Source: Sphingomonas astaxanthinifaciens DSM 22298
Lineage (GTDB): Bacteria; Pseudomonadota; Alphaproteobacteria; Sphingomonadales; Sphingomonadaceae
NCBI RefSeq assembly: GCF_000711715.1
Contig: NZ_JONN01000001.1
Coordinates: forward strand, 1,178,001-1,242,000
Direction: 5' to 3'
DNA length: 64,000 nucleotides
The notes under the pieces are model-generated. The model searched no databases, was not told the origin of the DNA, and was given only the letters and a program-made list of their open reading frames with translations. This document shows, in pieces, positions 4,186 to 22,570 of the stretch. A program made the position numbers and the translations under genes. Position 1 is the first letter of the stretch. The number at the start of each line of letters is the position of its first letter.

Positions 4186-4191
4186 CGCCGC

Positions 4192-5982
<1,791 letters not shown>

Positions 5983-5996
5983 TCACTTCAACGCGA

Positions 5997-6054: not shown

Positions 6055-6185
6055 GATGTCGGCTACCCGCATTGCCAGCCCGCTCCGAGTTCGATAGCCT
6101 CCCGGCCGGAACGACGTTCACGCGGCAGGTACGCCCATCGTTTCTGGCCGACGCAAAAGCGCCGACTACACTCGAGGAGACCGCA

Positions 6186-7049: not shown

Positions 7050-7075
7050 TTGCGCCACCCGGCGCCGGAGCATTG

Positions 7076-8497: not shown

Positions 8498-8498
8498 G

Positions 8499-8542
8499 TG
8501 TCCAATTCGTTTGACGCCGTAGAGTGTCTGACATAGCCTACG
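8499..8542 (+). promoter_or_regulatory. bchG promoter with two PpsR-type boxes; predicted leaderless start
   Basis: The 48-bp ppsR/bchG gap holds TGTCCAATTCGTTTGACG (8499-8516) and TGTCTGACATAGCCTACG (8525-8542), both TGT-N12-ACG, with starts 26 bp apart. TTGACG (8511-8516) and TAGCCT (8534-8539) form -35 and -10 elements separated by exactly 17 bp, one in each box. Transcription would begin near 8546, the A of the bchG ATG, and no Shine-Dalgarno sequence precedes bchG. This is the geometry of a promoter shut by a dimeric or tetrameric repressor, with a leaderless mRNA as the likely product. Confidence 0.72.
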
Positions 8543-8545
8543 GCC

Positions 8546-9448
8546 ATGACTCGGCTTGCCCGCCAGCTCGCGCCGCCGGCGCCTCCTGCCGCTGCCGACA
8601 TCCTTGAGCTTACCAAGCCGATCACCTGGTTTCCGCCGATGTGGGCGTTCGGCTGCGGCGTGGTCGCCTCGGGCCAGCCGGTTGGCGGAAAGCTCCTCCT
8701 CCTCATTGCCGGCGTGGCGCTGACCGGGCCGCTCGTCTGCGGCACCAGCCAGATGGTCAACGACTGGTTCGACCGCCACGTCGACGCCATCAACCAGCCC
8801 GAGCGGCCGATCCCCTCGGGACGGATCGCGGGAAGCTGGGGGCTGTGGCTCGCCTGTCTCGGCACTGCCGGGTCCCTGGCGTTGGCCGCGACCATGGGCA
8901 GCCTCGTCTTCCTGGCGACCATCGCCGCGCTGGTGCTGGCCTGGGCCTATAGCGCCCCGCCCGCGCGGCTGAAGACGAGCGGCCTGTGGGGCCCCCTCGC
9001 GGTCGGCCTCAGCTACGAATCGCTGACCTGGTTCACCGGCTCGGCGCTGATGCTCGGCGCCCTGCCCCCGGTCACGACCCTCGAGGTGCTGCTGCTCTAC
9101 GGCATTGGCGCCTGGGGCATCATGACCCTGAACGACTTCAAGGCGGTGGAGGGTGACCGGCTGACGGGCGTGCGCTCGCTCCCGGCGGAAGTCGGAATCA
9201 ACCCGGCGGTCCTGCTGGCCTGCCTCGCCATGGCCATTCCCCAGGCGCTGGTGGTGCTGCTCCTGCTCGGCCAGGGACTGGACAAGAGCGCGGGGGCGGT
9301 AGCGATCAGCCTCGCCCTGCAGGTCGCCTGCATGGCGCGGCTTACCACCGATCCCAAGCGCTTCGCTCCCTGGTACAATGCGACCGGGGTCACCCTCTAC
9401 GTCCTCGGCATGGCGGCCGCGGCGATCGGGCTCGGATCGCTCGCATGA
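8546..9448 (+). CDS. bchG: Bacteriochlorophyll synthase (geranylgeranyl transferase)
   Basis: UbiA-family integral membrane prenyltransferase that esterifies bacteriochlorophyllide a with geranylgeranyl or phytyl diphosphate, the last assembly step of the pigment. The protein has 300 residues with about eight or nine membrane segments. The first Asp-rich motif NDWFDRHVDAINQP is intact, followed by ERPIPSGRI, both signatures of chlorophyll synthases. A second conserved loop around LNDFKAVEGDR is present. It is followed with a 4-bp ATGA overlap by the PucC-like gene and then bchP, the usual order. Confidence 0.97.
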   Translation: MTRLARQLAPPAPPAAADILELTKPITWFPPMWAFGCGVVASGQPVGGKLLLLIAGVALTGPLVCGTSQMVNDWFDRHVDAINQPERPIPSGRIAGSWGLWLACLGTAGSLALAATMGSLVFLATIAALVLAWAYSAPPARLKTSGLWGPLAVGLSYESLTWFTGSALMLGALPPVTTLEVLLLYGIGAWGIMTLNDFKAVEGDRLTGVRSLPAEVGINPAVLLACLAMAIPQALVVLLLLGQGLDKSAGAVAISLALQVACMARLTTDPKRFAPWYNATGVTLYVLGMAAAAIGLGSLA

Positions 9449-10758
9449 ACGGCTGGGGCGTGATCCTCCGCCTCGGCACCGTCCAGGCGGCGATCGGCGC
9501 CATGGTGATGCTGGCGACATCGCTTCTCAACCGCGTCATGGTGGTCGAGCTCGGGCTCGCCGCGGCCATCCCCGCGGGTCTGGTCGCCTGGCATTATGCG
9601 GTGCAGCTGTCGCGCCCCTTGAGCGGCCATGCCTCGGACCGCACCGGCCGGCGGACGCCGTGGATCGTCGCGGGCATGAGCCTGCTTGCGCTGGGCTCGC
9701 TGATCGCGGTCGAGGCCGTCGCCGCGCTGCCCGTCGGCGCGGCGTCACAGCTGACGACCCTCGTCCTCGGCTTCACCATGATCGGCCTCGGGGTCGGCGC
9801 CGCCGGGACCGCGCTGCTCGCGCTGCTTGCCGCCGCGGTCCCGCCCGACCGCCGCGCCGCCGCCGCTGCGACGACATGGATCATGATGGTGGCGGGGATC
9901 GCGGTCGCGGCGGGAGTCGCGGGTAGCCTGCTCCAGCCCTTCACCTTCGACCGTCTGGTCGTGGTCGCGGGCGGGCTGGTCGCCATCGCCCTCGCCGCCG
10001 CGCTCGCCGCGATCGTCCGGCTCGAGCGCGGCATCACCGTCGCCGAGCCCCGGCCGGCGGTGCCTTTCGGGAGCGCCCTCCACGAGGTCCGCCGGGACCG
10101 CGAGGCCGTCCGCTTCACCCTCTTCGTCTTCCTGTCGATGCTCGCCTACAGCATGCAGGACCTGATCCTCGAGCCCTTCACCGGCCTCGTCTTCGGTGCG
10201 GCACCCGGCCAGTCGACCCAATATGCCGGGGTCCAGCACGGCGGGATCCTGATCGGCATGGTGCTGGCGGGCCTGGGCGGCGGGCGGGCGCGGCGGCGCT
10301 GGGGCCTGTCGCTCCAGTGGTGGACCGTCGGCGGCTGCCTCGGCTCGGCCATCGCGCTCGCCGGCCTCGCCGGCTCGGCGCTCGCCGGACCTCCCTGGCC
10401 GATTGCCGGCAACATCTTCCTCCTCGGCCTGATGAACGGCATCTTCGCCGCCGCTGCGATCGGCGCGATGATGGAGCTTGCCGGCACCGACGGCTCGGCG
10501 CGGGCCGGCGTCCGGATGGGAGTGTGGGGCGCGGCGCAGGCTTTTGCCTTCGGCACCGGCGGCCTCCTTGGCGCGGTCATCACCGACATCGCGCGGCGCT
10601 TGCTTGGCCATGACGGGCAAGCCTTTGCGCTCACCTTCGCCGGCGAGGCCGGCCTGTTCCTCGTGGCCGCCTTGTTCGCGGTCCGCCTGCCCGCCGCAGC
10701 CCGCGGCCGCCCCGAAGCTGGAGACTATCAATGGAGCGCTTCGACGCCGTCGTCATAG
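9445..10758 (+). CDS. bch2: PucC/LhaA-family (BCD) MFS protein
   Basis: A 437-residue polytopic membrane protein of the bacteriochlorophyll delivery (BCD, PucC/LhaA) branch of the major facilitator superfamily, with about 12 hydrophobic segments. The intracellular loop GHASDRTGRRTPWIV is the MFS motif A variant seen in this branch. Its position between bchG and bchP is that of the gene called bch2 or ORF428 in purple bacteria. The family is implicated in assembly of light-harvesting complexes, though the exact role of this paralog is not established. It overlaps bchG by 4 bp and bchP by 28 bp. Confidence 0.9.
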   Translation: MNGWGVILRLGTVQAAIGAMVMLATSLLNRVMVVELGLAAAIPAGLVAWHYAVQLSRPLSGHASDRTGRRTPWIVAGMSLLALGSLIAVEAVAALPVGAASQLTTLVLGFTMIGLGVGAAGTALLALLAAAVPPDRRAAAAATTWIMMVAGIAVAAGVAGSLLQPFTFDRLVVVAGGLVAIALAAALAAIVRLERGITVAEPRPAVPFGSALHEVRRDREAVRFTLFVFLSMLAYSMQDLILEPFTGLVFGAAPGQSTQYAGVQHGGILIGMVLAGLGGGRARRRWGLSLQWWTVGGCLGSAIALAGLAGSALAGPPWPIAGNIFLLGLMNGIFAAAAIGAMMELAGTDGSARAGVRMGVWGAAQAFAFGTGGLLGAVITDIARRLLGHDGQAFALTFAGEAGLFLVAALFAVRLPAAARGRPEAGDYQWSASTPSS

Positions 10759-11918
10759 GTGGCGGCCCCTCGGGGGCCACCGCCGCCGACGACCTCGCGC
10801 TGGCCGGCCGCAAGGTGCTGCTGCTCGACCGGGCCGGGCGGATCAAGCCATGTGGCGGCGCGGTCCCGCCGCGGCTGCTCGAGGACTTCGCCATCCCCCA
10901 TTCGCTGCTGGTCGCCCGCGCGACTTCGGCGCGGATGATCGCCCCCTCCTCCAAGGCGGTGCGGATGCCCGTCGGCGATGGCTTCGTCGGAATGGTCGAC
11001 CGCGACACCTTCGACGAATGGCTCCGCAATCGTGCCGCCAGCCACGGCGCGCACCGTCGCACCGGCTCGTTCGAGCGGATCGAGCGCAATGCCGAGGGCG
11101 GCGCGGTCGTCTGCTATCGCGAGGAACGCGGCGGCGAGTTGATCCGGGTCGGGGCACGCTCGGTGATCGGGGCCGACGGCGCTCGGTCCGCCGTCGCCCG
11201 CGAGTCCCTCCCCGGCGCCGAGCGCGTGCCCTGCGTCTTCGCCTATCACGAGGTGATCAGCGCGCCCGACATCGACAACAAGGCCTATGAAGGCGAGCGC
11301 TGCGACGTCTTCTACCAGGGCGACCTCTCGCCCGATTTCTACGGCTGGATCTTTCCGCACGGGAAGACCGCCAGCGTCGGCGTCGGCGTCGCCAACAAGG
11401 GCTTTGCCCTGCGCGACGCGGTCAAGACCATGCGCGCGCGAAACGGGCTCGAGGATTGCACGACGATCCGCCGCGAGGGCGCGCCGATTCCGCTGAAGCC
11501 CCTCAAACGCTGGGACAATGGCCGCGACGTGGTCGTCGCCGGCGACGCCGCAGGCGTGGTGGCACCAGCCTCCGGCGAAGGCATCTATTATGCCATGACC
11601 TGCGGGCGCATGGCGGCCGAAGCGGTCGCCGAATTCCTCGACAGCGGCGACCCGAAGGCACTCGGGCTCGCTCGCAAGCGCTTCATGAAGGCCCATGGCC
11701 GGGTCTTCTGGGTGCTGCGGATGATGCAATATTTCTGGTATTCGTCGGACAAGCGACGCGAGCGCTTCGTCCACATCTGCGACGATCCCGACGTCCAGCA
11801 TCTCACCTGGCAGGCCTATATGAACAAGCGGCTCGTCAAGGCGAAGCCCGGCGCTCACCTGCGCATCTTCCTCAAGGATACCGCCCATTTGCTGGGCCTG
11901 GCGACGGTGCGGGCATGA
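10731..11918 (+). CDS. bchP: Geranylgeranyl reductase for bacteriochlorophyll
   Basis: FAD-dependent reductase that saturates three double bonds of the geranylgeranyl tail to give phytylated bacteriochlorophyll a. The protein has 395 residues. The N-terminal dinucleotide fold has VVIGGGPSGATAADDLA (about residues 7-23) and the conserved KPCGGAVPPRLL that follows in chlorophyll-type reductases. A second FAD motif, VVVAGDAAGVVAPASGEGI, lies around residues 265-285. The start overlaps the preceding gene by 28 bp, and its stop overlaps tspO by 4 bp, so all five genes from bchG onward are tightly coupled. Confidence 0.97.
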   Translation: MERFDAVVIGGGPSGATAADDLALAGRKVLLLDRAGRIKPCGGAVPPRLLEDFAIPHSLLVARATSARMIAPSSKAVRMPVGDGFVGMVDRDTFDEWLRNRAASHGAHRRTGSFERIERNAEGGAVVCYREERGGELIRVGARSVIGADGARSAVARESLPGAERVPCVFAYHEVISAPDIDNKAYEGERCDVFYQGDLSPDFYGWIFPHGKTASVGVGVANKGFALRDAVKTMRARNGLEDCTTIRREGAPIPLKPLKRWDNGRDVVVAGDAAGVVAPASGEGIYYAMTCGRMAAEAVAEFLDSGDPKALGLARKRFMKAHGRVFWVLRMMQYFWYSSDKRRERFVHICDDPDVQHLTWQAYMNKRLVKAKPGAHLRIFLKDTAHLLGLATVRA

Positions 11919-12415
11919 CCCGCGAGGACGATCTCGGGCGGCCCTGGCTGCTGCCGGCCACGCTGGCGGCGGGCTGCGCGATCATCGTCGCGATGGTCGG
12001 CATGACGCTGACCGACCTCGGTCCTTGGTATCAGTCGCTGCGCCAGCCCGACTGGGCGCCGGCGCCGGCCGTCTACGGGGTCGCCTGGACGACCATCTAT
12101 GCGCTGGCGGCGCTCTCGGCGGTCAGTGCGTGGAGCGCCGCGCCCAATCGCGCCTCGGCCGAGCTGATCGTCGGCGCCTTTGCGCTCAACGGCTTCCTCA
12201 ACATCGTCTGGAGCCTGCTGTTCTTCAACGCGCGACGGCCCGACCTCGCTTTCTACGAGGGGATCGCGCTGTGGCTGTCGGTCGCCGCGCTGATCCTCCT
12301 GTGCCTCAGACATTCGCGCCCGGCAGCGCTCCTCCTCCTGCCCTATCTGGCGTGGGTGAGCGTTGCCGGGCTGCTGAATGCCGAGGTGGTCCGCCTGAAC
12401 GGACCCTTCGGTTGA
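11915..12415 (+). CDS. tspO: Tryptophan-rich sensory protein TspO/MBR family
   Basis: Five-helix membrane protein that binds porphyrins and, in Rhodobacter, modulates photosynthesis gene expression in response to oxygen, probably through tetrapyrrole efflux or breakdown. The protein has 166 residues, with family blocks WYQSLRQPDWAPAPAVYGVAW, NGFLNIVWSLLFF and LPYLAWVSVAGLLN (tyrosine and leucine in the ligand pocket). The ATG at 11915 overlaps the bchP stop. Linkage to bchP suggests a role in balancing tetrapyrrole intermediates. Confidence 0.93.
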   Translation: MTREDDLGRPWLLPATLAAGCAIIVAMVGMTLTDLGPWYQSLRQPDWAPAPAVYGVAWTTIYALAALSAVSAWSAAPNRASAELIVGAFALNGFLNIVWSLLFFNARRPDLAFYEGIALWLSVAALILLCLRHSRPAALLLLPYLAWVSVAGLLNAEVVRLNGPFG

Positions 12416-12418
12416 GCC

Positions 12419-12958
12419 TTACTTCTGGGTCGCCAGCCAGGCGATCAGGTCGGCGCGCTTCTGCGGGTCCTGGATGCCGGCAAAGGCCATCTTGGTGCCC
12501 GGAACGACGCGCTGCGGGTTCTCGAGATACTGGAACAGCTTCTCGGGGGTCCAGGTGATGCCGCTGTTCTTGTTGGCGGCCGAATAGGCATAGCCCGGCT
12601 CGACGCCCGAGTGGCGGCCGACAATGGCATGGAGGCTCGGCCCGATCCGGTTCACGCCGGCGTCGGTGACGTGGCAGGTCTTGCACTGGATGAAGACCGC
12701 CTCGCCCTTGCTGGCATCACCGGTGAAGTCGGCGAGCTTGGCGCCGCTGACGGTGGCGGTGTCGGCAGCGGCCGGAGCAGCCGCGGCGGCGGGAGTCGCG
12801 GCGGGCGCGGCCGCAGCGGTGTTGGTGGCGGCCGGCGCCGTGGTGTTGGCCGCGGTCGTCGTTCCCTCGCTCTTCGAGGAGTCGCCGCCGCCGCCGCAAG
12901 CTGTGGCCGATACAGCAACGAAAAGGGCAGAGGCGATAAAGCTGGAAGTGCGATTCAT
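12419..12958 (-). CDS. Lipoprotein class I cytochrome c
   Basis: A 179-residue exported cytochrome c. The signal peptide ends in a lipobox (SATAC, Cys21), so the protein is predicted to be a membrane-anchored lipoprotein. An Ala/Pro/Thr-rich linker of about 45 residues (about 26-70) joins a single haem domain. Haem is bound by Cys92, Cys95 and His96 (CKTCH), with Met157 (PGTKMAF) as the distal ligand, as in cytochrome c2/c550. The ATG at 12958 has GGGAGGAA upstream and begins a proper signal sequence, unlike an earlier in-frame start. It converges on tspO with a 3-bp gap. A role as electron donor to the reaction centre or an oxidase is possible but inferred from location. Confidence 0.88.
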   Translation of the reverse strand: MNRTSSFIASALFVAVSATACGGGGDSSKSEGTTTAANTTAPAATNTAAAAPAATPAAAAAPAAADTATVSGAKLADFTGDASKGEAVFIQCKTCHVTDAGVNRIGPSLHAIVGRHSGVEPGYAYSAANKNSGITWTPEKLFQYLENPQRVVPGTKMAFAGIQDPQKRADLIAWLATQK

Positions 12959-13087
12959 GAACGATTCCTCCCTGACTGCGACGCGGAAGTAAGCAGAAAC
13001 TTCGAAGCCCGGCAATGAATACAAAGGCCAGTTGTCAACGTCGCAATTACCGGGTTTTCTCCATCAAACGGCAGAAGGGTCACACCC

Positions 13088-14341
13088 GTGGAATTCCACC
13101 CCTCGCGCGATACCCTGCTTGCCGAGGTCCATGCCCGGCCCTCGACTCCGATCGAAGCGCCGATGCTGGTCACCCGGATCGCCGCTCTGTCGGGCCAGGA
13201 GGGGGTCGCCGCCGACCGCCGGCACATCGCCGACCTCTGCACCCGCATGGGCAAGACCAGGCCCGCCGACGACTCGGTCTGGTGCGCGATCGACGGCGGC
13301 GACTGGCAGCTCCGCTGGGAGCGGCACGGCGAATTCTCGAGCTGGACCTTCTTCGCCAAACCCAATTGGGTCGCGGGCGAAAGCGCGACCGACCGGGTGC
13401 CCAAGGCGTGGCTCGACTCGCTGCCGGGGCCGGTCCTCGTGCTGACCACCCTCATCATCGACCGGGTCGAGGAGGAACAGGCAATCGACGCCGCCCGCTC
13501 CGAGGCGATCGGCTCGCGCGTGATGGGGGGCGCCGCGACCGTCCTTACCGATCTTCGCGCCGATGCCGCGGGTATGACCCGCTTCCTGCTGACGATGCAC
13601 CGCGACGACCCCGTCCTCACGGGCCGGATTGCGCTCATCCTGCTCGAGATCGAGAGTTACCGGCTGATGGCGCTGCTCGCCTTCCCGGTCGCCCAGCAGA
13701 CCGCCGCCAAGCTGTTCGACATCGAGGCCGAAGCCCGCGAGCTGACCGAGAAGATCGCGACGCATCTCGGGGTCGACGACGACCGCGACCTCCTCGCCAG
13801 ACTGGTCGCCCTGTCGGGACGGATGGAGGCCATGGGGGCGAGCACCAGCTTCCGCTTCGGCGCCGCGCGCGCCTATTTCGACATCGTCCAGACCCGCATC
13901 GGCTGGCTCGGCGAAGAGCCCCTGCCCGGCCGCCAGACCATCCGCGAATTCATGGATCGCCGCCTCGTGCCCGCGATCCGGACCTGCGTCAGCGTCGCCG
14001 ACCGCGAGGCCGGGATGATCGCCCGCATCGCCCGCGCCGGCCAGATGCTCAGCACCCGGGTCGAGCTCGTCACGCAGAAGATCAACGCCGACCTCCTGAA
14101 CTCGATGAACCGCCGCGCCTCGATGCAGCTCGGGCTCCAGCGGACGGTCGAGGGCCTGTCGGTCGCGGCGGTCTCTTATTACGTTGTCTCGCTGCTGCTG
14201 ATCCCGGTGAAGGCGCTCGGCGACCATCGCGCGGGGCTCCGGACCGACCTCATCACGATCGCCCTGGTGCCCATCGTGGTCCTGCTGGTGTGGCTGTCGC
14301 TGCGCCGGATCGGCAAGCGGATCGACGACGACGACCACTAG
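13088..14341 (+). CDS. DUF3422 family membrane protein
   Basis: A 417-residue protein of the DUF3422 family, recognised by its N-terminal HPSRDTLLAEVHARP and overall length. Two hydrophobic helices near the C-terminus (about 350-370 and 385-405) with a basic and acidic tail suggest a membrane-anchored protein with a large cytoplasmic part. It starts with GTG, preceded by AAGGG at 8 bp. Biochemical function is unknown to me. It lies between the cytochrome c gene, from which it diverges, and regA, on which it converges with a 3-bp gap, so it is not in either operon. Confidence 0.85.
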   Translation: MEFHPSRDTLLAEVHARPSTPIEAPMLVTRIAALSGQEGVAADRRHIADLCTRMGKTRPADDSVWCAIDGGDWQLRWERHGEFSSWTFFAKPNWVAGESATDRVPKAWLDSLPGPVLVLTTLIIDRVEEEQAIDAARSEAIGSRVMGGAATVLTDLRADAAGMTRFLLTMHRDDPVLTGRIALILLEIESYRLMALLAFPVAQQTAAKLFDIEAEARELTEKIATHLGVDDDRDLLARLVALSGRMEAMGASTSFRFGAARAYFDIVQTRIGWLGEEPLPGRQTIREFMDRRLVPAIRTCVSVADREAGMIARIARAGQMLSTRVELVTQKINADLLNSMNRRASMQLGLQRTVEGLSVAAVSYYVVSLLLIPVKALGDHRAGLRTDLITIALVPIVVLLVWLSLRRIGKRIDDDDH

Positions 14342-14344
14342 GCC

Positions 14345-14878
14345 CTAGCGGACCGGGCGCTTCTCCAGCTTCCGGGCAAGCGTCCGGCGGTGCATCCCGA
14401 GCCGCCGCGCCGTCTCCGAGATGTTGAAGCCCGTCGCGATCAGCGTCTCGTTGATCTTCTCCCATTCGAGCGTCTTGATCGAGGTCGCGCGCCCGTCGAC
14501 CGGGACGTCGGCATCGCCCGCGACCCGGCCGAAGGCGGCCTCGATGTCGTCGGTGTTGCTCGGCTTGGGAAGATAATGGGCCGCGCCGAGCTTGATCGCC
14601 TCGACCGCGGTGGCGATGCTGGCGAAGCCGGTGAGGACGACGATGCGGGTGTCGGGATTGGCCTCGGCGAGCGCGGCGACGCACGGCAGTCCCGAATGCA
14701 CGCCGAGCTTGAGGTCTACCACCGCGAAGTCGAAGCCGGTCTGGGCCAGCAGCGCCTCCAGCGCATTCGGGCTGAACGCGGTGCTGACGGCATAACCCCG
14801 CCGTTCGAACGAACGGGCGAGGGTGCGCGCGAAATCCTCGTCATCCTCGACGATCACCAGTCGCCGCCCGGCGCTCAT
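14345..14878 (-). CDS. regA: Redox response regulator RegA/PrrA/ActR
   Basis: Global redox response regulator. In Rhodobacter it activates photosynthesis, respiration, CO2 and nitrogen fixation genes when phosphorylated by RegB. The protein has 177 residues: a receiver domain (1-115) with phospho-acceptor Asp55 (VVDLKLG) and Lys in YLPKPSN, a short hinge, and a Fis-like HTH (about 140-175, NISETARRLGMHRRTLARKL), which is almost invariant in the family. The ATG at 14878 overlaps the regB stop (ATGA). It is the last gene of the cyo-surf1-regB-regA run. Confidence 0.95.
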   Translation of the reverse strand: MSAGRRLVIVEDDEDFARTLARSFERRGYAVSTAFSPNALEALLAQTGFDFAVVDLKLGVHSGLPCVAALAEANPDTRIVVLTGFASIATAVEAIKLGAAHYLPKPSNTDDIEAAFGRVAGDADVPVDGRATSIKTLEWEKINETLIATGFNISETARRLGMHRRTLARKLEKRPVR

Positions 14879-16182
14879 GCGGAGGCCTCGGCACCGACCA
14901 GCGGAAGCGCGATGCGGACCGACGCCCCGCCCTCGCGGCGATTGCGCGCGGTCAGTTCGCCGCCCAGCCGGCGCGCGACACTGGCAGCGAGGAACAGCCC
15001 GAGGCCATGGCCCGGCCCCTTGTTCGAGCGCCCGGCGAGGCCGAGCTCGTCGAGCTGCTGGCGGGTAAAGCCGCGCCCGCGGTCGACGACGTCGATGACC
15101 AGTCGCTCGCCGCGAATTCCGGCGCGCAGGCCGATTCCTCCCGGCGAGGCCTCGCCGGCATTGTCGAGCAGGCTCCACAATGCCTGCCGGAGCGCGGGCT
15201 CGGCGGGAACGCGAAGCCCGCGGACATGGGCGACGTCGCAGGCGATCGGCACGCTCTCGCGCATCTCGCGCCAGTCGGCGACCAGCCCCTCGAGCAGGCC
15301 GGCGGCCTCGACCGAGGCCATGGCCTCGCCCCGCGTCTGACCGGACGTGTCGAGAATGTCGCTGACGATCTCGCGGCAGCGCTCGACCGCCCGGCGCGCG
15401 TCGCCCAGTTCCTCGAGGAAAGCCGGGTCACGCGACAAGGCGGGATCGCGCTGCCAGTCGCCGATCAGCACCGACAGCGAGGACAGGGGGGTGCCGAGCT
15501 CGTGCGCCGCGCCGCTCGCGAACAGGCCCATGCGCACGATGCTGTCCTCCTCGGCGGCGCTGCGGCGAAGCTCGGCGACATAAAGCTCGCGCGCGCGCAG
15601 GTTGCGGATGATCCGGGTCATGAAGGCGACCAGCAGCACCGCGACCATGACGAAGGCGATTTCCTCGCCCAGCAGGCGCAGGTCGAGCTTGCGGTCGACC
15701 GCCGGCGGAAGCGCCAGCGGCAGGTGGTTGAAGGTCAGGAAAACGAAGGCCACCACCGAGAGGACGACCAGCAGCCAGGCCCGGCTGGCAGGCAGCAGGA
15801 TGGCGCCGAGCACGATCTGGAGGAGGTAGAGCGAGACGAAGGGATTGTTGGTCCCGCCCGACAGGTAGAGCTGCGCGGTCAGCGCCGCCATGTCGAGCAG
15901 CAGCGCGAGGAGGAGCTCGCCCGGGACCACCCAGGCAGTGCGCAGCGTCGAAGCGAAGAGGAGGTTGCCCAGGGCGAGCAGCGCGGCGATCGCCAGCATC
16001 GGCCCCAGCGGCAGCGGCACGCCCAGCCCGAGGCTCGCCGCCAGGATCGCCGCCACCTGGCCGCCGACCGCGATCCACCGCAGCTGGTTCAGCAGCCGCA
16101 TGTTCTCGACCACGACCTGCTGGGTGCTGCGGCCGGTGGTGCGCGTCGTGTGCGGCGTCAGGGCGAGCAACGGGGCGTCCAT
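14875..16182 (-). CDS. regB: Redox sensor histidine kinase RegB/PrrB
   Basis: Membrane histidine kinase sensing ubiquinone redox state and cytoplasmic redox. The protein has 435 residues with six membrane helices (about 30-195). The quinone-binding motif GGTNNPF is at 109-115, the H-box GAAHELGTPLSS carries phosphorylated His227, and the redox-active cysteine is Cys269 (VERCREIVSD). An HATPase domain with DNAGEASPGG and GHGLGLFLAASVARR follows. The start overlaps the surf1 stop by 1 bp (TGATG). In Rhodobacter the gene between regB and regA is senC. Here regA follows directly and an oxidase operon precedes. Confidence 0.96.
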   Translation of the reverse strand: MDAPLLALTPHTTRTTGRSTQQVVVENMRLLNQLRWIAVGGQVAAILAASLGLGVPLPLGPMLAIAALLALGNLLFASTLRTAWVVPGELLLALLLDMAALTAQLYLSGGTNNPFVSLYLLQIVLGAILLPASRAWLLVVLSVVAFVFLTFNHLPLALPPAVDRKLDLRLLGEEIAFVMVAVLLVAFMTRIIRNLRARELYVAELRRSAAEEDSIVRMGLFASGAAHELGTPLSSLSVLIGDWQRDPALSRDPAFLEELGDARRAVERCREIVSDILDTSGQTRGEAMASVEAAGLLEGLVADWREMRESVPIACDVAHVRGLRVPAEPALRQALWSLLDNAGEASPGGIGLRAGIRGERLVIDVVDRGRGFTRQQLDELGLAGRSNKGPGHGLGLFLAASVARRLGGELTARNRREGGASVRIALPLVGAEASA

Positions 16183-16883
16183 CAGGGACGACTATCGGGG
16201 CTTTTCCAGACCAGGACCAGCCCGACGATGCTGAGCGCGGCGAGGCCGAACCAGGTCAGCGCGTAGACGAGGTGCGCATTGCGGAAGCGGACCACGGTCA
16301 GCCCGCCGCGCGGCCAGCCGGCCTGGCCCCTGGCGGCGGCGGCATCGATGAAAAAGGGCGCGACCTTGCCCAGTCCCCTCCTCGCCGCGATGGCCGCGAC
16401 GTCGCGCGAATAGAACAGGTCCTGCGCGGGCCGGTTGGGGCGGAGGACGCGGCCCCCGGGCTCGCTCGGACGGAGAAGCCCGGTGACGCTGACCTCTCCG
16501 GCAGGCGAAGGCGCAAAGGCGGTCTTCTTGGGCACGAAGCCGCGATTGACGAGGATGGTGCCGGTGGCGGTGCGAAGCGGGGTGAGGACCCACCATCCGG
16601 GCCCGAGCTCGGTCAGTGCGTCGACCCGGGTGGCCTGGTCGTCCGCGAACCGGCCGCTGACGGCGACCCGGCGATAGTCGATGTCCGAAGGCGCCAGGGT
16701 CGCCCACTCCCCTGGCGCGGGCGGCGCGACCGGCGGGGCGGCGAGCCGGGCCTCGACCCGGCGGATGAGGTCGAGCTTCCACTGAAGCCGCTCGACCTGC
16801 CAGATGCCGAGGCCGCCGAACAGCAAGGCGAGGAGCCCGCAGAGCGACAGCAGGAGGACGCGCTTGGGCGCACCCCGGGTCAC
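16182..16883 (-). CDS. surf1: SURF1-family oxidase assembly protein
   Basis: Haem-copper oxidase assembly factor of the SURF1/Shy1 family, involved in haem a/o insertion into subunit I. The protein has 233 residues with two membrane helices, one near the N-terminus (about 10-30) and one near the C-terminus (about 205-225), flanking a periplasmic domain. Family motifs include GIWQVERLQWK, LTPLRTATGTILVNRGFVP and the C-terminal RNAHLVYALTWFGLA. The GTG at 16883 is chosen because it overlaps the cyoD stop as GTGA. It closes the cyo gene set and is coupled to regB by a 1-bp overlap. Confidence 0.9.
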   Translation of the reverse strand: MTRGAPKRVLLLSLCGLLALLFGGLGIWQVERLQWKLDLIRRVEARLAAPPVAPPAPGEWATLAPSDIDYRRVAVSGRFADDQATRVDALTELGPGWWVLTPLRTATGTILVNRGFVPKKTAFAPSPAGEVSVTGLLRPSEPGGRVLRPNRPAQDLFYSRDVAAIAARRGLGKVAPFFIDAAAARGQAGWPRGGLTVVRFRNAHLVYALTWFGLAALSIVGLVLVWKSPDSRP

Positions 16884-17263
16884 GGCGTGCCGGCGACCTC
16901 GCCGCTGTCCATCATCCCCGGCATCATGTTGCTGTTGAGATGGTACATGATCCACAGCGAGCCCGCGATGGTGATCACCAGCAGCACGCCGGTGAAGACA
17001 TAGGCGAGCAGGGTCCAGCCGCCTTCCGAGGTCGTGTTCACGTGCAGGAAGCAGATGGTGTGAACGAGGATCTGCGCCACCGCGAACAGGATCACCAGCA
17101 CCGCGGTCGCGGTCGGGTCGGCGAGCGGACGGGCCATCACCAGCCAGAAGGGGATGATGGTCAGGACCGCCGACAGCGCGAAGCCGATCAGATAGCTCTT
17201 GCGGGTGCCGTGGGTCTGGCCGTCGTCATGCGCGTGGAGGTCGGTGTCGGCGGACGAACTCAT
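16880..17263 (-). CDS. cyoD: Cytochrome o ubiquinol oxidase subunit IV
   Basis: Small subunit of the proton-pumping cytochrome bo3-type quinol oxidase, with a role in assembly. The protein has 127 residues and three membrane helices (about 23-45, 50-73 and 83-105), with FAVAQILVHTICFLHVN typical of CyoD. A His/Asp-rich N-terminus precedes the helices. It overlaps cyoC by 4 bp at its start and surf1 by 4 bp at its end. The Met-rich tail (NSNMMPGMMDSG) is longer than in the E. coli protein. Confidence 0.93.
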   Translation of the reverse strand: MSSSADTDLHAHDDGQTHGTRKSYLIGFALSAVLTIIPFWLVMARPLADPTATAVLVILFAVAQILVHTICFLHVNTTSEGGWTLLAYVFTGVLLVITIAGSLWIMYHLNSNMMPGMMDSGEVAGTP

Positions 17264-17892
17264 CGCAGCATTCCCAGAAGATAGACGAAGGTGAAGACGC
17301 CGATCCAGATGACGTCGAGGAAGTGCCAGAACATGCTGAGGCACATCAGCCGGCGCTTGTTGACCGTGTTGAGGCCGAACCGGCCGACCTGCACCAGCAT
17401 GATCCCGATCCACAGGATGCCGACGCTGACGTGAAGCCCGTGGGTCCCGACCAGGGTGAAAAAGCCCGACAGGAAGCCCGAGCGCTGCGGTGTCGCGCCC
17501 TCGTGGATCAGCTTGCCGAACTCGTAGAGCTCGACCGCGACGAAGCTCATTCCGAGCAGCGCGGTGATGGCGAGCCAGGTCTGGACCGAGCGGACCCGGC
17601 CCTTGTCCATGGCCAGCATCGCGAAGCCGTAGGTGATCGAAGACACCAGCAGGATCGCGGTATTGAGCGCGACCAGCGGAAGCTCGAAGATCTCGCGCGG
17701 GCTGGGACCGCCGGCGAAGCTCGAGGAGAGCACGCCATAGGTCGCGAACAGCGAGGCGAAGATGAGCGCGTCGCTCATCAGGTAGATCCAGAAACCCAGC
17801 AGGACCGGGCTCGAGTGGCTGCCGTGGCCGTCCGCCTCGTCGAGGTGGAAGACGTCGCGGTCGACGGGGGCGGCGGGAGTGGGCTTGAGCAT
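17260..17892 (-). CDS. cyoC: Cytochrome o ubiquinol oxidase subunit III
   Basis: Subunit III of the quinol oxidase, a five-helix membrane protein of the COX3 family. The protein has 210 residues. LLGFWIYLMSDALIFASLFATY at the first helix and GTHGLHVSVGILW near helix 4 are family hallmarks, and the last block FWHFLDVIWIGVFTFVYL ends the protein as expected. Its start abuts the cyoB stop with 1 bp overlap, and its stop overlaps the cyoD start by 4 bp. Confidence 0.95.
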   Translation of the reverse strand: MLKPTPAAPVDRDVFHLDEADGHGSHSSPVLLGFWIYLMSDALIFASLFATYGVLSSSFAGGPSPREIFELPLVALNTAILLVSSITYGFAMLAMDKGRVRSVQTWLAITALLGMSFVAVELYEFGKLIHEGATPQRSGFLSGFFTLVGTHGLHVSVGILWIGIMLVQVGRFGLNTVNKRRLMCLSMFWHFLDVIWIGVFTFVYLLGMLR

Positions 17893-19943
17893 CAGCGGGC
17901 TCCCACCGGCGCCGGGTGGCGGTCTTCGATGGTCGGCACGGGCTTGGCCGGCGCCGCGGCGGCGGGGGTGAGGAAGCCGATCCGCTCGCGTTCGGTCCTC
18001 GCGACCTCGTCGGCCGGGATGTCATAGTCCCGGTCGTAGTCGAAGCTGTGCCAGATGGTCACCGCGACCAGCGCCAGCGCCGAGACGATCGCCAGCCACC
18101 AGATGTACCAGACCATCGCGAAGCCGAGCGCGGCGGCGAGCCCGGCCTGGATCACCGGCGTGCCCGTGTTGCGCGGCATGTGGATCGGCCGGAAGCCGTC
18201 CTTGGGGTGGTCGTAACCGCGGCACTTCATGTCATACCAGGCGTCGAGGTCGTGGATCACCGGCGTGAAGGCGAAATTATAGGCCGGCGGCGGCGAGCTC
18301 ATCGACCATTCGAGCGTCCGCGCGTCCCACGGATCGTTGCCGACCCTGAGCCTTTCGCGGTCGCGGATCGAGACCACGATGCTGATCAGGAAGCCGACGA
18401 TGCCGACGAGGATGATCGCGGCGCCGATCGCGGCGACGATGAAGTAGGGCTGGAGCGTCGGATCGTCGAAATGACGCACCCGGCGCGTGGTCCCCATCAG
18501 GCCGACGATGTACATCGGCGTCCAGGCGACCCAGTAGCCGATCACCCAGCCCCAGAAGTGGACCTTGCCCCACTTCTCGTCGAGCTTGAAGCCGAACGCC
18601 TTGGGCCACCAATATTCGATCCCCGCGAACAATCCGAACACCACGCCGCCGATGATCACATTGTGGAAATGGGCGACGAGGAACAGGCTGTTGTGGAGCA
18701 CGAAGTCGGCCGGCGGGACGGCCAGCAGAACGCCGGTCATGCCCCCCACCGTGAAGGTGAGCAGGAAGGCGACGACCCACATCATCGGCAGCTCGAACCT
18801 TATCTCGCCCCGGTACATGGTGAACAGCCAGTTGAAGATCTTCGCGCCCGTCGGGATCGAGATCACCATCGTCGCAATGCCGAAGAAGCTGTTGACGCTG
18901 GCGCCCGAGCCCATGGTGAAGAAGTGGTGGAGCCAGACGAGGAAGCTCAGGATCGTGATGACCACCGTCGCATAGACCATCGACGAATAGCCGAAGAGGC
19001 GCTTGCCGGTGAACGTGCTGGTCACTTCCGAGAAGATGCCGAACACCGGCAGGACCAGGACGTAGACCTCGGGGTGACCCCAGATCCACACCAGGTTCCA
19101 GTACATCATCGGATTCCCACCAAGGTCGTTGGTGAAGAAGTTGGTGCCGATGTAGCGGTCGAGCATCAGCATGCCGAGCGCGCCCGTCAGGATCGGGAAG
19201 ATGGCGATGGCGAGCGTCTGGCTGCACAAAGTCGTCCAGCAGAAGACCGGCATCTTCATCATGCTCATGCCCGGCGCGCGCATCTTGATGATGGTCGTCA
19301 CCATGTTGATCGCGCTGAGCGTGGTGCCGACGCCCGCGATCTGGAGCGCCCAGAGATAATAGTCGGGCCCGACGCCGGGCGAATTCTCGAGATTGGCGAC
19401 GGGCACGTAGTTGAGCCAGCCCGCGGTCGAGAACTCGCCGACGAACAGCGAGACCATCACCAGCCCGGCGCCCGCCGCGGTCAGCCAGAAGCTCAAGGAG
19501 TTGAGATAGGGAAAGGCAACGTCGCGCGCGCCGATCTGGAGCGGCATCACGAAGTTGATCACGCCCGAGATCAAGGGAATCACCACGAAGAAGATCATGA
19601 TCGTCCCGTGGGCGGTGAAGATCTGATCGTAATGGTGGGCGTTGAGGTAGCCCTCATTCGCCCCGAAGGCGATCGCCTGCTGCGCGCGCATCATGATCGC
19701 GTCGGAGAAACCGCGAAGCAGCATCACCACGCCGAGGATCATGTACATGATCCCGATCTTCTTGTGGTCGACGGTGGTGAACCACTCGTTCCACAAATAG
19801 CCCCACAGCTTGAGCTTGGTGATGGCGCCGAGCACCGCGAGCCCGCCCAGCGCGACCACGATGAAGGTGCCGACTACGATCGGCTCGTGGATCGGCAGGC
19901 TGTCGAGGCCGAGGCGGCCGAAGATGATCTTGGGATCGAACAC
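17892..19943 (-). CDS. cyoB: Cytochrome o ubiquinol oxidase subunit I
   Basis: Catalytic subunit with low-spin haem, high-spin haem and CuB, reducing O2 to water and pumping protons. The protein has 683 residues, as in E. coli CyoB, with about 15 membrane helices. The ligands are visible: the first haem-ligand His in [10 protein letters not shown], CuB His and cross-linked Tyr in [12 protein letters not shown], paired CuB histidines in [10 protein letters not shown], and haem histidines in [11 protein letters not shown]. The haem type (o3 or a3) cannot be told from sequence alone. cyoA ends 9 bp upstream. Confidence 0.97.
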
Positions 19944-19952
19944 GGGTGGTGC

Positions 19953-21065
19953 CTAGCTCATGTTGCGGTTGGCAGGATCGCCGGGCTTGGTGACGCCAGG
20001 CGCCTTGCTCGGATCGATCGGCTTGCCGACGTTGGTTCCGGTGCCCTTTTCCTCGGGCGACTTCATCAGCGCGCCCTCGGGCTTCTGGCCGGCGATGGGC
20101 GCCGAGCCGCGGCCCGCCGGCATCGCCATGCCCTGGTGCATGCCACGGCCCATGTCCTTGGCCATGACCTCGCTCATGCACGGCTGGCCGGGGAGCAGGC
20201 AGCGCTCAAGGATGCGCTTGTAGATGTCGGGCTCGGCCGCGGCGAACAGGATCGGCGGGACCTTTTCGGTCGGCTTGAGGAGCGCGATGGCGGTCGCCCG
20301 GTCGAGCGTCCGGCCGCTCGCCTTGGCCTGGCCGATCCAGCCGGCGAACTGCTGCTCGCTCACCCCGCGGATGCGGAAGCGCATGCCCGAGAAGCCCGCG
20401 CCACTGTAATTGCCCGAATAGCCCTGGTCGTCGACCGGCCGGTCCAGCACCGCGTGGAGCGTGCTCTGCATGCCCGGCATGGCATAGACCATCCCCGCCA
20501 TGGTCGGCGCGTAGAAGGTGTTCATCATGTTCGACGAGGTGATGTCGAAGCGCACCGGCCGGTCGAGCGGGAGGACGAGGTCGTTGACCGTCGCAATGCC
20601 CTGTTCGGGGTAGATGAACAGCCACTTCCAGTCGAGCGAGACGACCTGGACCCGAAGCGGCGGGAGGCTCTTCTCGGCCTGCCCCTCGAGCGCGGTCGCC
20701 TTGGCATTGATCGGCCGGAAGGGATCGAGCAGGTGGGTGCTCGACCAGGTCAGCGCGCCCAGCGCGATGATGATCAGCAGCGGGGCCGACCAGATGACGA
20801 GCTCGAGGCTGGTCGAATGGTCGAACTTGGGATCGTAGGTTCCGCCATTCCCCTTGCGGTAGCGCCAGGCGAAAACCACGATCAGCACCATCACGGGCAC
20901 GATGATCAGCAGCATCAGCGCGGTCGAGATGTAGATCAGATCGCGCTGCTGGCGCGCGACGTCGCCCGCGGGATTGAGCACCCCGCGGTCGCAGGCGCCG
21001 AGCAGCAGTACGCAAACGGCAAGCGCCGCGCACTTCAGTCGATTGGAAACGGTCTGCAATTGCAT
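19953..21065 (-). CDS. cyoA: Cytochrome o ubiquinol oxidase subunit II (lipoprotein)
   Basis: Subunit II of the oxidase, 370 residues. A lipoprotein signal (VCVLLLGACDRG) is followed by two membrane helices and a periplasmic cupredoxin domain. The CuA ligands of cytochrome c oxidases are absent, which identifies a quinol oxidase. The C-terminal tail (about 290-370) is unusually long and low in complexity, rich in Met, Gly, Pro and Lys. The ATG at 21065 is preferred over a GTG nine bases upstream that lies inside the ribosome-binding sequence AGGTGGG. It is the first gene of cyoABCD-surf1-regBA. Confidence 0.95.
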   Translation of the reverse strand: MQLQTVSNRLKCAALAVCVLLLGACDRGVLNPAGDVARQQRDLIYISTALMLLIIVPVMVLIVVFAWRYRKGNGGTYDPKFDHSTSLELVIWSAPLLIIIALGALTWSSTHLLDPFRPINAKATALEGQAEKSLPPLRVQVVSLDWKWLFIYPEQGIATVNDLVLPLDRPVRFDITSSNMMNTFYAPTMAGMVYAMPGMQSTLHAVLDRPVDDQGYSGNYSGAGFSGMRFRIRGVSEQQFAGWIGQAKASGRTLDRATAIALLKPTEKVPPILFAAAEPDIYKRILERCLLPGQPCMSEVMAKDMGRGMHQGMAMPAGRGSAPIAGQKPEGALMKSPEEKGTGTNVGKPIDPSKAPGVTKPGDPANRNMS

Positions 21066-21099
21066 GGCGCCCACCTAGGCTGCCGCCAAAATCGGCGAC

Positions 21100-21118
21100 A
21101 TTGGACAAAATGTCCAAT
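21100..21118. promoter_or_regulatory. Perfect palindrome upstream of cyoA (operator candidate)
   Basis: ATTGGACA-AAA-TGTCCAAT is a perfect inverted repeat with 8-bp arms and a 3-bp spacer. It is centred 44 bp upstream of the cyoA ATG and about 100 bp upstream of the divergent transporter start. It does not match FNR (TTGAT-N4-ATCAA) or PpsR (TGT-N12-ACA) sites. The half-site TGTCCAAT also occurs at 8499-8506 at the start of the first box in the bchG promoter. A dimeric regulator of the oxidase operon is likely, but its identity is unknown. Confidence 0.55.
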
Positions 21119-21211
21119 CCCTCCCAACCGACTGCTGCGGCATTGGCTCCTCATGCGTTCGTGCGCGCGGTGTCGCGTGCTATGAAGGTGCCCGTGGGAG
21201 ACGAAGAATCA

Positions 21212-22570
21212 ATGACTGCCACCGCCGACCAGGCCAGCAGCGAGACGCTCGAGCGCGACGCCCGGGTCCTCCATGCCGATGAGGATCACGTCCGGCCGGG
21301 CGAGATCGCGATCGGGGTGATCATCGGCCGAACCACCGAATTCTTCGACTTCTTCGTCTACGCCATCGCCTCGGTTCTGGTCTTCCCGAGCTACGTCTTT
21401 CCCTATGTCGATCCGCTGACGGGGACGCTCTACAGCTTCGCGCTGTTCAGCCTGGCCTTCTTCGGCCGGCCGCTCGGCACCTTCCTCTTCACCTACATCG
21501 ACCAGCACCACGGGCGCGGGGTGAAGCTCACCATCGCTTTGTTCCTGCTCGGCGGCTCGACCATGGCGATCGCGCTCCTTCCGAGCTATGCGCAGGTCGG
21601 CGCGACGAGTGCCTGGCTGCTCGGCCTGTTCCGGCTGCTGCAGGGCGTCGCGCTCGGCGGCGCCTGGGACGGCCTGCCTTCGCTCCTTGCCCTCAACAGC
21701 CCGCGCGACCGGCGCGGCTGGTATTCGATGATCCCTCAGATCGGCGCGCCGCTCGGCCTCGCGCTCGCCTGCGGCCTGTTCGCCTATTTCGTCGCGCTGC
21801 TCGAGCCCGCCGATTTCCTGTCCTGGGGCTGGCGCTATCCCTTCTTCGTCGCTTTGGCGCTCAACATCGTCGCCTTGTTCGCGCGCCTGCGGCTGGTCGC
21901 GACGCCCGAATTCAAGCGACTGTTCGACACTCGCGAGCTGCAGCCCTCGCCGCCGTTCGAGACCCTTTCGGCGGAGTGGCGGACGATCCTCCTCGGGGCC
22001 TTCGCTCCGCTGGCGAGCTTCGCCCTGTTCCACCTCGTCGCGGTGTTCCCGCTCTCCTACAACCAGCTCTTCACCGACACCGACCCGGTCCGCTTCCTCA
22101 TCATCGAGGGAGTCGGCGCGCTGATCTGCGTGCTTGCGATCGTCGGGTCGGGCGTGCTTGCCGACCGGGTCGGCCGCCGCGCGGTGCTCGGGGTCTCGGC
22201 AGCGCTGATTGGTGCCTACAGCGGCTTCGCGCCCCAGCTACTCGGCGCCGGCCAGCTCGGCGAGGCCATCTACCTGTTCGGCGGCTTCGTCCTTCTGGGG
22301 CTCGCCTTTGGCCAGTCGTCGGGCGCGGTGAACAGCAGCTTCAGCCTCAATTATCGCTACACCGGCGCGGCGATCGTCTCCAACTCGGCCTGGTTCATCG
22401 GCGCGGGCTTCGCCCCGCTGGTCGCGCTGTGGCTCACCGCCCATGTCGGGCTGTGGGCGGTCGGGCTCTACCTCCTGTCGGGGGTGATCTGCACGCTGGG
22501 CGCGCTGCTCATCAACCGCGAGTGGGGCCTGCGCGAGGCCGAAAGCGCTCGGGCCGGCGCCGCCGGCTAG
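21212..22570 (+). CDS. MFS transporter, metabolite:H+ symporter (MHS) family
   Basis: A 452-residue, 12-helix major facilitator protein. The block IGRTTEFFDFFVYAIASVLVFPSYVFP in helix 1 and RLLQGVALGGAWDG in helix 5 place it in the metabolite:proton symporter branch (alpha-ketoglutarate, proline/betaine and related carriers). The substrate cannot be read from sequence. The start is uncertain: ATG 21212 has GGAGACGAAGAA upstream, but in-frame starts exist at 21182 and 21101. It is divergent from cyoA, sharing the region with the ATTGGACA palindrome, and overlaps the convergent mfd gene by 4 bp. Confidence 0.85.
   Translation: MTATADQASSETLERDARVLHADEDHVRPGEIAIGVIIGRTTEFFDFFVYAIASVLVFPSYVFPYVDPLTGTLYSFALFSLAFFGRPLGTFLFTYIDQHHGRGVKLTIALFLLGGSTMAIALLPSYAQVGATSAWLLGLFRLLQGVALGGAWDGLPSLLALNSPRDRRGWYSMIPQIGAPLGLALACGLFAYFVALLEPADFLSWGWRYPFFVALALNIVALFARLRLVATPEFKRLFDTRELQPSPPFETLSAEWRTILLGAFAPLASFALFHLVAVFPLSYNQLFTDTDPVRFLIIEGVGALICVLAIVGSGVLADRVGRRAVLGVSAALIGAYSGFAPQLLGAGQLGEAIYLFGGFVLLGLAFGQSSGAVNSSFSLNYRYTGAAIVSNSAWFIGAGFAPLVALWLTAHVGLWAVGLYLLSGVICTLGALLINREWGLREAESARAGAAG

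What the first reader, a model, noticed from the sequence alone, without database searches (positions are those of the whole stretch)
14345..21065. Quinol oxidase, SURF1 and the RegB/RegA redox system in one overlapping gene run
cyoA-cyoB-cyoC-cyoD-surf1-regB-regA are in one direction with 9, 1, 4, 4, 1 and 4 bp contacts. RegB keeps the quinone motif GGTNNPF and Cys269. The sensor of quinone redox state would be cotranscribed with an enzyme that oxidises quinol, which is a direct feedback design. In Rhodobacter the partner gene is senC and the operon carries no oxidase structural genes.
Basis: partly seen in the sequence, partly recalled or inferred. Interest (0 to 1): 0.72.

Follow-up and report, generated by a model that had tools for sequence, protein, structure and literature searches.

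The report
Quinol oxidase operon with built-in redox regulator
Many bacteria carry a backup respiratory enzyme in one gene block with the sensor and regulator that probably control it, and a short mirror-image DNA sequence in front of the block goes together with the regulator genes, which points to a self-regulating respiratory switch.

Summary
In detail: cyoA-cyoB-cyoC-cyoD-surf1-regB-regA lie on the minus strand, 21065 to 14345, with contacts of 9, 1, 4, 4, 1 and 4 bp. The arrangement is not new: papers on Sphingopyxis granuli TFA (2019, 2020) describe a putative cyoABCDsurF1regBA operon, its induction, and possible RegBA autoregulation. Nor is it confined to Sphingomonadales (also Bradyrhizobium, Azospirillum, Variovorax, Herbaspirillum, a Steroidobacter MAG).

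The addition is a 19-bp palindrome (ATWGGACANNNTGTCCWAT; window 21100-21118) between cyoA and a divergent MHS transporter gene. In the genus sample it occurs exactly, once each, in the same 15 of 61 genomes that carry this RegB. It stands upstream of cyoA in 161 of 161 scored loci with regB in the stretch and in five more whose genome holds regB elsewhere, but in 0 of 14 other cyo loci (three of them second copies in RegB genomes). The co-losses are few (2 to 4 changes on a CyoB tree). Its core matches the published RegR motif. A -10-like TA at fixed spacing places it near -44 of a predicted leaderless cyo promoter, with a weaker mirror image toward the MHS gene.

Best reading: RegA binds here and drives its own operon. 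Binding and direction of control are inferred.

The parts
19953..21065 (-). cyoA, ubiquinol oxidase subunit II (370 aa)
   Evidence: TIGR01433 281.3 bits, over the cut-off; no CuA cysteines in the C-terminal domain (read from the translation; ligand motif recalled)
17892..19943 (-). cyoB, ubiquinol oxidase subunit I (683 aa, GTG start)
   Evidence: TIGR02843 1062.1 bits, over the cut-off
17260..17892 (-). cyoC, subunit III (210 aa)
   Evidence: TIGR02842 260.5 bits, over the cut-off
16880..17263 (-). cyoD, subunit IV (127 aa)
   Evidence: TIGR02847 108.4 bits, over the cut-off (run on a slightly longer reading)
16182..16883 (-). surf1, oxidase assembly factor (233 aa, GTG start)
   Evidence: PF02104 174 bits
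14875..16182 (-). regB-like sensor histidine kinase (435 aa): GGTNNPF 109-115, His227, Cys269
   Evidence: NF033792 194.7 bits, below its cut-off of 350; HisKA and HATPase_c
14345..14878 (-). regA-like response regulator (177 aa): receiver plus Fis-type HTH
   Evidence: PF00072, PF02954; NF033791 152.9 bits, below its cut-off of 250
21100..21118 (.). palindrome ATTGGACA-TTT-TGTCCAAT, candidate RegA operator; the only site in the genome with 0-2 mismatches
21073..21078 (-). predicted -10-like element CTAGGT of the cyo promoter; predicted start at about 21065, the A of the cyoA ATG (leaderless)
   Evidence: T and A at fixed spacing from the palindrome, each in 78 of 90 loci; coordinates
21141..21146 (+). 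predicted -10-like element (CATTGG) of the divergent MHS promoter, weaker
   Evidence: mirror position, A in 70 of 90 loci; coordinates
21101..22570 (+). divergent MHS-type metabolite/H+ symporter gene (MFS); longest ORF listed, the real start is probably downstream of 21150 (inference)
   Evidence: TIGR00883 259.5 bits, below its cut-off of 443.45; PF07690, PF00083; homologue beside cyoA in most fetched loci

Best explanation
This is a bo3-type ubiquinol oxidase operon that encodes its assembly factor (SURF1) and a divergent, cyo-linked RegB/RegA-type redox two-component system. Most likely mechanism: when the cytochrome c branch is blocked or overloaded (low O2, NO, an inhibitor), the quinone pool becomes reduced; RegB senses this through GGxxNPF and Cys269 and phosphorylates RegA; RegA binds the palindrome centred near -44 of the cyo promoter and activates cyoABCD-surf1-regBA, and probably the divergent MHS transporter gene too. 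More bo3 oxidase re-oxidises quinol and quenches the signal, while regBA in the transcript gives positive autoregulation. Shown here: gene content and order, conserved sensor residues, co-occurrence of palindrome and regBA, fixed spacing to a -10-like TA, one exact site per RegB genome in the genus sample. Inferred: RegA binds the site, activation rather than repression, the signal, the leaderless start.
For: (1) Genus sample: cyo-type RegB in 15 of 61 genomes (E <= 5.6e-99); the exact palindrome once each in the same 15 and in 0 of the other 46, of which G103 and G199 keep a close cyo. (2) Scored loci (180 of 196): 161 of 161 with regB in the stretch have the site (lowest score 14.7); so do five whose genome holds regB elsewhere (two detached, three contig-split); 14 of 14 others lack it (highest -1.8). 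Of 600 shuffles 99% stay below 6.0; the highest, 15.6, exceeds the weakest real site. (3) The site persists where regBA is not in the cyo transcript: G062 (about 34 kb away), G530 (2.2 Mb away on the contig), G194 (behind the divergent MHS gene), Labrys L299 (opposite direction). (4) T and A 23-24 nt past the site edge in 78 of 90 loci each; mirrored A on the MHS side in 70 of 90. (5) The core GRCRTTNNGNC of the B. japonicum RegR motif (quoted in PMC5506826) is matched 11 of 11; 44 of 5000 shuffled-half palindromes do as well. MHRRTL of the DNA-binding helix is found in 12 of 13 cyo-linked RegA rows (L122 has LHRRTL) and 5 of 5 canonical rows. (6) Published: the operon is induced in S. granuli by nitrate respiration and, in air, by an NO donor; RegA of another species raises cyo mRNA (PMC8191878).
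Against: No binding or mutant data exist for this RegA. Co-loss rests on few events: 4 changes on the best CyoB tree, bootstrap range 3-4, only 2 forced by well-supported branches, and the direction (loss rather than gain) is read, not shown. Second cyo copies in three RegB genomes (G132, G424, G436) have no site, so RegB in the genome does not by itself bring a site. The detached regBA loci of G062 (L123) and G530 (L228) have no strong site of their own (best 2.1 and 5.0), so autoregulation is not universal. The R. capsulatus RegA motif is matched no better than by many shuffled palindromes (672 of 5000). S. granuli has an internal regB promoter, so regBA there is not solely under the cyo promoter. 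The same group saw no cyoC induction by NO in anoxia without nitrate, which a simple quinone model must explain.
Confidence: 0.7

Rival explanations
1. The palindrome is the operator of a different, unlinked regulator of cyo and the MHS gene, and its co-occurrence with regBA only reflects shared ancestry of this cyo lineage.
For: Only 2 to 4 independent changes; no binding data; second cyo copies in three RegB genomes lack the site; the detached regBA of G062 and G530 lack a strong site.
Against: The site and regBA sit at opposite ends of the operon with five genes kept between them, yet both are missing in G103, G112 and G199. The core matches the RegR motif. No other regulator gene was noticed as constant, but the neighbourhoods were not systematically annotated and unlinked genes were not compared.
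Confidence: 0.18
2. RegA represses rather than activates: the palindrome overlaps the -35 region of both promoters and RegA shuts them until the quinone pool changes.
For: The predicted position overlaps the -35 region on both sides; such regulators can act either way (general knowledge).
Against: A centre near -44 fits class II activation; the operon is strongly induced in S. granuli; in another species the regA mutant has less cyo mRNA in air (log2 1.35 to 2.44).
Confidence: 0.2
3. The neighbourhood is only a convenient gene cluster: regBA is mainly expressed from its own internal promoter and works as a global regulator, with no special feedback on cyo.
For: Internal regB start site with Fnr box and aerobic transcription in S. 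granuli; RegA is a global regulator in other species.
Against: The exact palindrome occurs once per RegB genome in the genus sample and with 0-2 mismatches once in this genome; gene order is kept in alpha-, beta- and gamma-proteobacteria; no exact Fnr pattern within 300 nt upstream of regB in 172 loci.
Confidence: 0.12

Closest known systems
cyoABCDsurF1regBA operon (SGRAN_2997-2991) of Sphingopyxis granuli TFA (PMC6472365, PMC7713065; passages and named sections read)
   Same: Same seven genes in the same order, overlapping or very close; the 2020 authors propose that RegBA could activate its own operon.
   Different: They report an internal Fnr site at regB and no Fnr site upstream of cyoA; no other operator was seen in the passages read. 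TFA itself was not among my loci, so the palindrome was not checked there; it is present in 7 of 7 loci titled Sphingopyxis (L236, L237, L238, L240, L241, L247, L251).
RegB/RegA (PrrBA, ActSR, RegSR) redox two-component systems
   Same: GGxxNPF, H-box and redox Cys in the sensor; receiver and Fis-type HTH in the regulator; operator core like RegR.
   Different: About 27-31% (RegB) and 40-45% (RegA) identical to five canonical-type pairs of the same order; below the NCBIfam cut-offs; encoded with an oxidase; a strict palindrome, usually one per genome, rather than degenerate sites.
Group 1 / group 2 RegBA paralogues (duplicated in R. capsulatus, C. crescentus, M. loti; quoted in PMC8191878 from an earlier work; a 2004 review that I tried is not held)
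   Same: A second RegBA group is already recognised; C. crescentus CC_1768/CC_1767 may be a cyo-linked pair (my recall of its neighbours, not checked).
   Different: Whether earlier work notes the cyo linkage could not be read; no operator was seen in the passages read.
regBA beside ctaRUS (cytochrome aa3 oxidase biogenesis) genes in Acidithiobacillus ferrooxidans (PMC2754497, passages)
   Same: RegBA next to oxidase-related genes, proposed to regulate them.
   Different: Transcribed in the other direction from those genes; no RegA motif could be predicted there (PMC5506826).

Membership tests
cyo bo3-type ubiquinol oxidase | Subunits I-IV pass the CyoA-D equivalog models | tested here: met
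   TIGR01433, TIGR02843, TIGR02842, TIGR02847 all over the cut-off
cyo bo3-type ubiquinol oxidase | No CuA centre in subunit II | tested here: met
   No cysteines in the region where CoxB carries CuA ligands; read from the translation, ligand motif recalled
RegB/PrrB/ActS redox sensor kinase | Quinone motif GGxxNPF, H-box His, redox-active Cys | tested here: met
   G109, G110, N113, P114, F115, H227, C269 invariant in 12 sequences; motif and Cys265 quoted in PMC8191878
RegB/PrrB/ActS redox sensor kinase | Over the NCBIfam equivalog cut-off NF033792 | tested here: not met
   194.7 vs 350 bits: best hit but below the curated cut-off, so filed as a cyo-linked subgroup and not as an ActS/PrrB equivalog
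RegB/PrrB/ActS redox sensor kinase | Kinase activity responds to quinone redox state | not testable with these tools
   needs biochemistry
RegA/PrrA/ActR response regulator | Receiver domain plus Fis-type HTH | tested here: met
   PF00072 72.7 bits, PF02954 43 bits; MHRRTL shared with 5 of 5 canonical rows
RegA/PrrA/ActR response regulator | Over the NCBIfam equivalog cut-off NF033791 | tested here: not met
   152.9 vs 250 bits
RegA/PrrA/ActR response regulator | Binding site with GNC-N5-GNC type core | tested here: inconclusive
   Palindrome matches the RegR core 11 of 11 (null 44 of 5000), PrrA 13 of 17 (null 134 of 5000), R. capsulatus RegA 13 of 15 (null 672 of 5000); binding not shown
S. 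granuli type cyoABCDsurF1regBA operon | Same gene order, one direction, overlapping or very close genes | tested here: met
S. granuli type cyoABCDsurF1regBA operon | Internal Fnr box upstream of regB | tested here: not met
   no exact TTGA-N6-TCAA in 300 nt upstream of the window's regB, nor in 172 loci (171 with the full 300 nt)
SURF1 assembly factor | SURF1 domain | tested here: met
   PF02104 174 bits

The most novel reading that the evidence does not exclude
The cyo-linked RegBA pair is a dedicated quinone thermostat and not a global regulator: in this genus RegA has one high-affinity palindrome per genome, which switches on both the bo3 oxidase operon that encodes RegBA itself and a divergent metabolite transporter gene. 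The same circuit (sensor, regulator, oxidase, assembly factor, operator) is conserved across alpha-, beta- and gamma-proteobacteria, and palindrome and regBA disappear together.
Probability: 0.5. Interest if true: 0.62.

Novelty: new variant of a known kind. Interest (0 to 1): 0.5.

Why it matters
RegA-family binding sites are hard to recognise; for A. ferrooxidans the authors could predict no motif (PMC5506826). A near-perfect palindrome that goes with the regulator gives a clean substrate for binding and structural work, and a way to ask whether RegB measures the quinone pool, because here the likely target enzyme directly oxidises quinol. It would also help to explain how many soil and plant-associated proteobacteria switch to a bo3 oxidase when cytochrome c oxidases are blocked by NO or low oxygen.

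Tried and rejected
Sigma-70 promoter scan and terminator scan: no promoter (0.7 expected) and 6 terminator-like sites (4.7 +/- 2.0 expected), so it neither supports nor excludes internal promoters. Rejected: a conserved internal Fnr box at regB. Rejected: Fnr control upstream of cyoA as the general rule; Fnr-like boxes were found in 5 of 29 loci (L109, L117, L118, L119, L122). Rejected: a Sphingomonadales-only feature. Not supported: a large regulon carrying this palindrome. In the own genome eight other places match with 3 mismatches, against 3 matches for the control pattern. By my reading of the listing, 17 of 320 RegB-negative family genomes have a one-mismatch site and none an exact one. 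Not resolved: five RegB genomes carry 2 or 3 sites with at most one mismatch (G255, G356, G353, G110, G530). The R. etli cyoABCD paper (PMC4274787, passages) has no mention of RegB or a two-component system in its main text.

Limits of the counts. Loci scored: 180 of 196; the rest have no cyoA or no upstream DNA in the stretch. One search reports 166 positive loci because I labelled five by hand (L111, L170, L217 contig-split; L113, L169 detached), while three loci in RegB genomes (L128, L165, L167, second cyo copies) were left as negatives; the labelling is thus not one rule, and the report gives 161, 5 and 14 apart. The 161 include close relatives and some genomes seen both unnamed and named (160 distinct upstream regions), so they are not independent. 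The score matrix is hand-weighted from sites. 'Close' cyoA means 55% identity or more in the genus and about 325 bits or more in the family sample. The independent-pairs test has no power (2 pairs on supported branches, 4 on all), and there I set the site label equal to the RegB label, so it adds only the number of changes. Stops inside CyoB stretches were read as X for the trees.
Full report
What is there. Seven genes run on the minus strand from 21065 to 14345: cyoA, cyoB, cyoC, cyoD, surf1, regB, regA. The four oxidase subunits pass their curated models, and SURF1 passes Pfam. The sensor has GGTNNPF, His227 and Cys269; GGxxNPF, the His and the Cys are invariant in a 12-row alignment that includes two canonical-type RegB rows. 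Both regulators score best against the RegB/RegA models but below the curated cut-offs, so they are a divergent subgroup. The genome (2.53 Mb) has one RegB of this kind and two matches to PF00115 (heme-copper oxidase subunit I), this cyoB and one other.

It is published. A full-text search led to Sphingopyxis granuli TFA. Passages and sections read describe a putative cyoABCDsurF1regBA operon with overlapping or very close genes, induced 7- to 48-fold in anaerobic nitrate growth and 2.5- to 9-fold by an NO donor in air; an internal regB start site with an Fnr box centred at -43.5; no Fnr site upstream of the first gene; and the suggestion that RegBA could activate the whole operon. So the arrangement and the feedback idea are known. 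A word search of the 2020 paper for the palindrome and for RegA binding gave nothing relevant. Searches listed no paper on such an operator, but I opened only some of the papers listed, and the library holds only open-licence papers.

Survey. In 61 genomes of the genus, 15 carry the cyo-type RegB (E <= 5.6e-99); six further genomes have only weak kinase matches, E above 1e-14. CyoA is found in 34 of 61; 17 are close (55% identity or more) and 17 only distant. All 15 RegB genomes are among the 17; the other two are G103 and G199. In 397 genomes of the family, 77 have RegB at E <= 1e-50 and 82 have a close cyoA (about 325 bits or more, 84 places). In 72 the two lie codirectionally within 9 kb; in three more (G452, G495, G520) the contig ends cut the operon but regB and regA follow surf1, cyoD and cyoC. 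In two, regBA is detached: about 34 kb away in G062, and 2.2 Mb away on the contig in G530. Six family genomes have a close cyo and no such RegB (G103, G112, G238, G295, G377, G441), and two RegB genomes have a second close cyo without regBA (G424, G436). In G194 of the genus, regBA lies behind the divergent MHS gene.

The palindrome. Upstream of cyoA a 19-bp inverted repeat stands out. In this genome it is unique at 0 to 2 mismatches; eight further places have 3 mismatches. In the genus it is present without mismatch, once each, in exactly the 15 RegB genomes; of the other 46, one (G147) has a one-mismatch match and none an exact one. In the family, by my reading of the listing, sites with at most one mismatch are found in 71 of 77 RegB genomes and 17 of 320 others; all 17 are one-mismatch matches. 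Of the six RegB genomes without one, five have a weaker version at the same place (L171, L207, L208, L216, L221) and one (G495) has no cyoA in its contig. A matrix scan of the cyoA upstream region was possible for 180 of 196 loci. All 161 with regB in the stretch score at least 14.7. Of 19 without, five have the site and carry regB elsewhere in the genome (L113 and L169 detached; L111, L170, L217 contig-split), and 14 score at most -1.8. Of these 14, eleven are in genomes without cyo-type RegB and three are second cyo copies in RegB genomes (L128 in G132, L165 in G436, L167 in G424), whose other, regBA-linked copy has the site. Of 600 shuffles 99% stay below 6.0; the highest, 15.6, is above the weakest real site.

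Geometry. Anchored on the palindrome, 90 loci show a T and an A 23 and 24 nt past its edge on the cyo side (78 of 90 each), with ATG mostly about 12 nt further on. Read as a -10 element this puts the start of transcription at or near the cyoA ATG (21065 here) and the palindrome centre near -44. On the other side an A at the same distance is found in 70 of 90, followed by G at 27 (54 of 90) and 28 (61 of 90). This is what one operator serving two divergent promoters would look like. It is a prediction from conservation; no start site was mapped.

Which protein binds. The published RegR consensus GNGRCRTTNNGNCGC (quoted in PMC5506826) fits 12 of 15 (282 of 5000 shuffled-half palindromes do as well), its inner eleven positions 11 of 11 (44 of 5000); PrrA fits 13 of 17 (134 of 5000) and R. 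capsulatus RegA 13 of 15 (672 of 5000). The MHRRTL segment of the RegA DNA-binding helix is the same in 12 of 13 cyo-linked rows (L122 has LHRRTL) and in 5 of 5 canonical rows. Site and regBA are at opposite ends of the operon, yet both are missing in G103, G112 and G199, and the site stays where regBA has moved. These lines favour RegA. Against: the number of independent changes is small (4; bootstrap 3-4; 2 forced), second cyo copies in RegB genomes lack the site, the detached regBA loci have no strong site of their own, and no binding was tested.

Breadth. In 78 of 80 cyoB, cyoC, cyoD, surf1, regB and regA are together in one direction. In Labrys (L299) regBA runs opposite to cyo, and in L290 no cyo lies within the stretch. 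All 76 scorable loci have the palindrome (lowest score 18.3), with variants such as ATTGGACAAATTGTCCAAT (Bradyrhizobium, Azospirillum), ATAGGACAAAACGTCCAAT (Variovorax) and GTGGGACAAAACGTCCAAT (Herbaspirillum). The unit therefore spans alpha-, beta- and, by a Steroidobacter MAG, gamma-proteobacteria.

Mechanism. RegB senses quinone redox state (established for RegB; GGxxNPF and Cys265 quoted in PMC8191878). In S. granuli the operon rises when nitrate is reduced and with NO in air. NO inhibits cytochrome c oxidases (general knowledge; for cbb3 also stated in the paper), which would leave quinol to accumulate; a bo3 oxidase would drain it. With RegA acting on its own operon, the loop has positive autoregulation and negative feedback through quinol oxidation. 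Activation is favoured by the position and by lower cyo mRNA in a regA mutant of another species. One published result does not fit easily: NO without nitrate in anoxia did not induce cyoC. That might mean that turnover of the respiratory chain is needed, or that another signal acts.

Verdict. Observation confirmed, interpretation partly supported and largely anticipated in print. The operator, its co-occurrence with regBA and the breadth of the unit are the additions. Interest 0.5.

Noticed in passing
window 2638-12415: Part of a photosynthesis gene cluster lies beside the operon: bchB, bchN, bchF, ppsR, bchG, pucC-like, bchP, tspO. bchP and the cytochrome c gene lie at the same side of regA in three genus relatives (L096, L097, L099), so a RegBA pair sits next to photosynthesis genes; no palindrome with 0-2 mismatches was found near them.
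   Followed up: partly
L107:1514-3710 (G103): Where regBA is missing after surf1, a different two-component system follows: a kinase with HATPase_c and a weak MASE1 match (29.4 vs cut-off 29.8 bits) and a LuxR-type response regulator, possibly a regulator swap.
   Followed up: partly
window 21101-22570: An MHS-type metabolite/H+ symporter gene is the divergent neighbour of cyoA in most regBA-linked loci, in beta-proteobacteria too; of the 80 named loci 75 have it, and three of the other five are cut by contig ends. Its substrate and link to the oxidase are unknown.
   Followed up: partly
L124-L128: A second, distant cyo class (cyoA about 39-45% identical) has no palindrome and no surf1 or regBA match nearby.
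   Followed up: partly
L117, L118, L119, L122: Fnr-like boxes (for example TTGATCCAGATCAA) lie just upstream of the palindrome in some relatives, suggesting a second, oxygen-dependent input there.
   Followed up: no
L232 (G476): A second copy of this RegBA kind without cyo in the 6.7-kb stretch.
   Followed up: no
window 12419-14341: A cytochrome c-like protein gene and a DUF3422 gene lie between the photosynthesis genes and regA.
   Followed up: no
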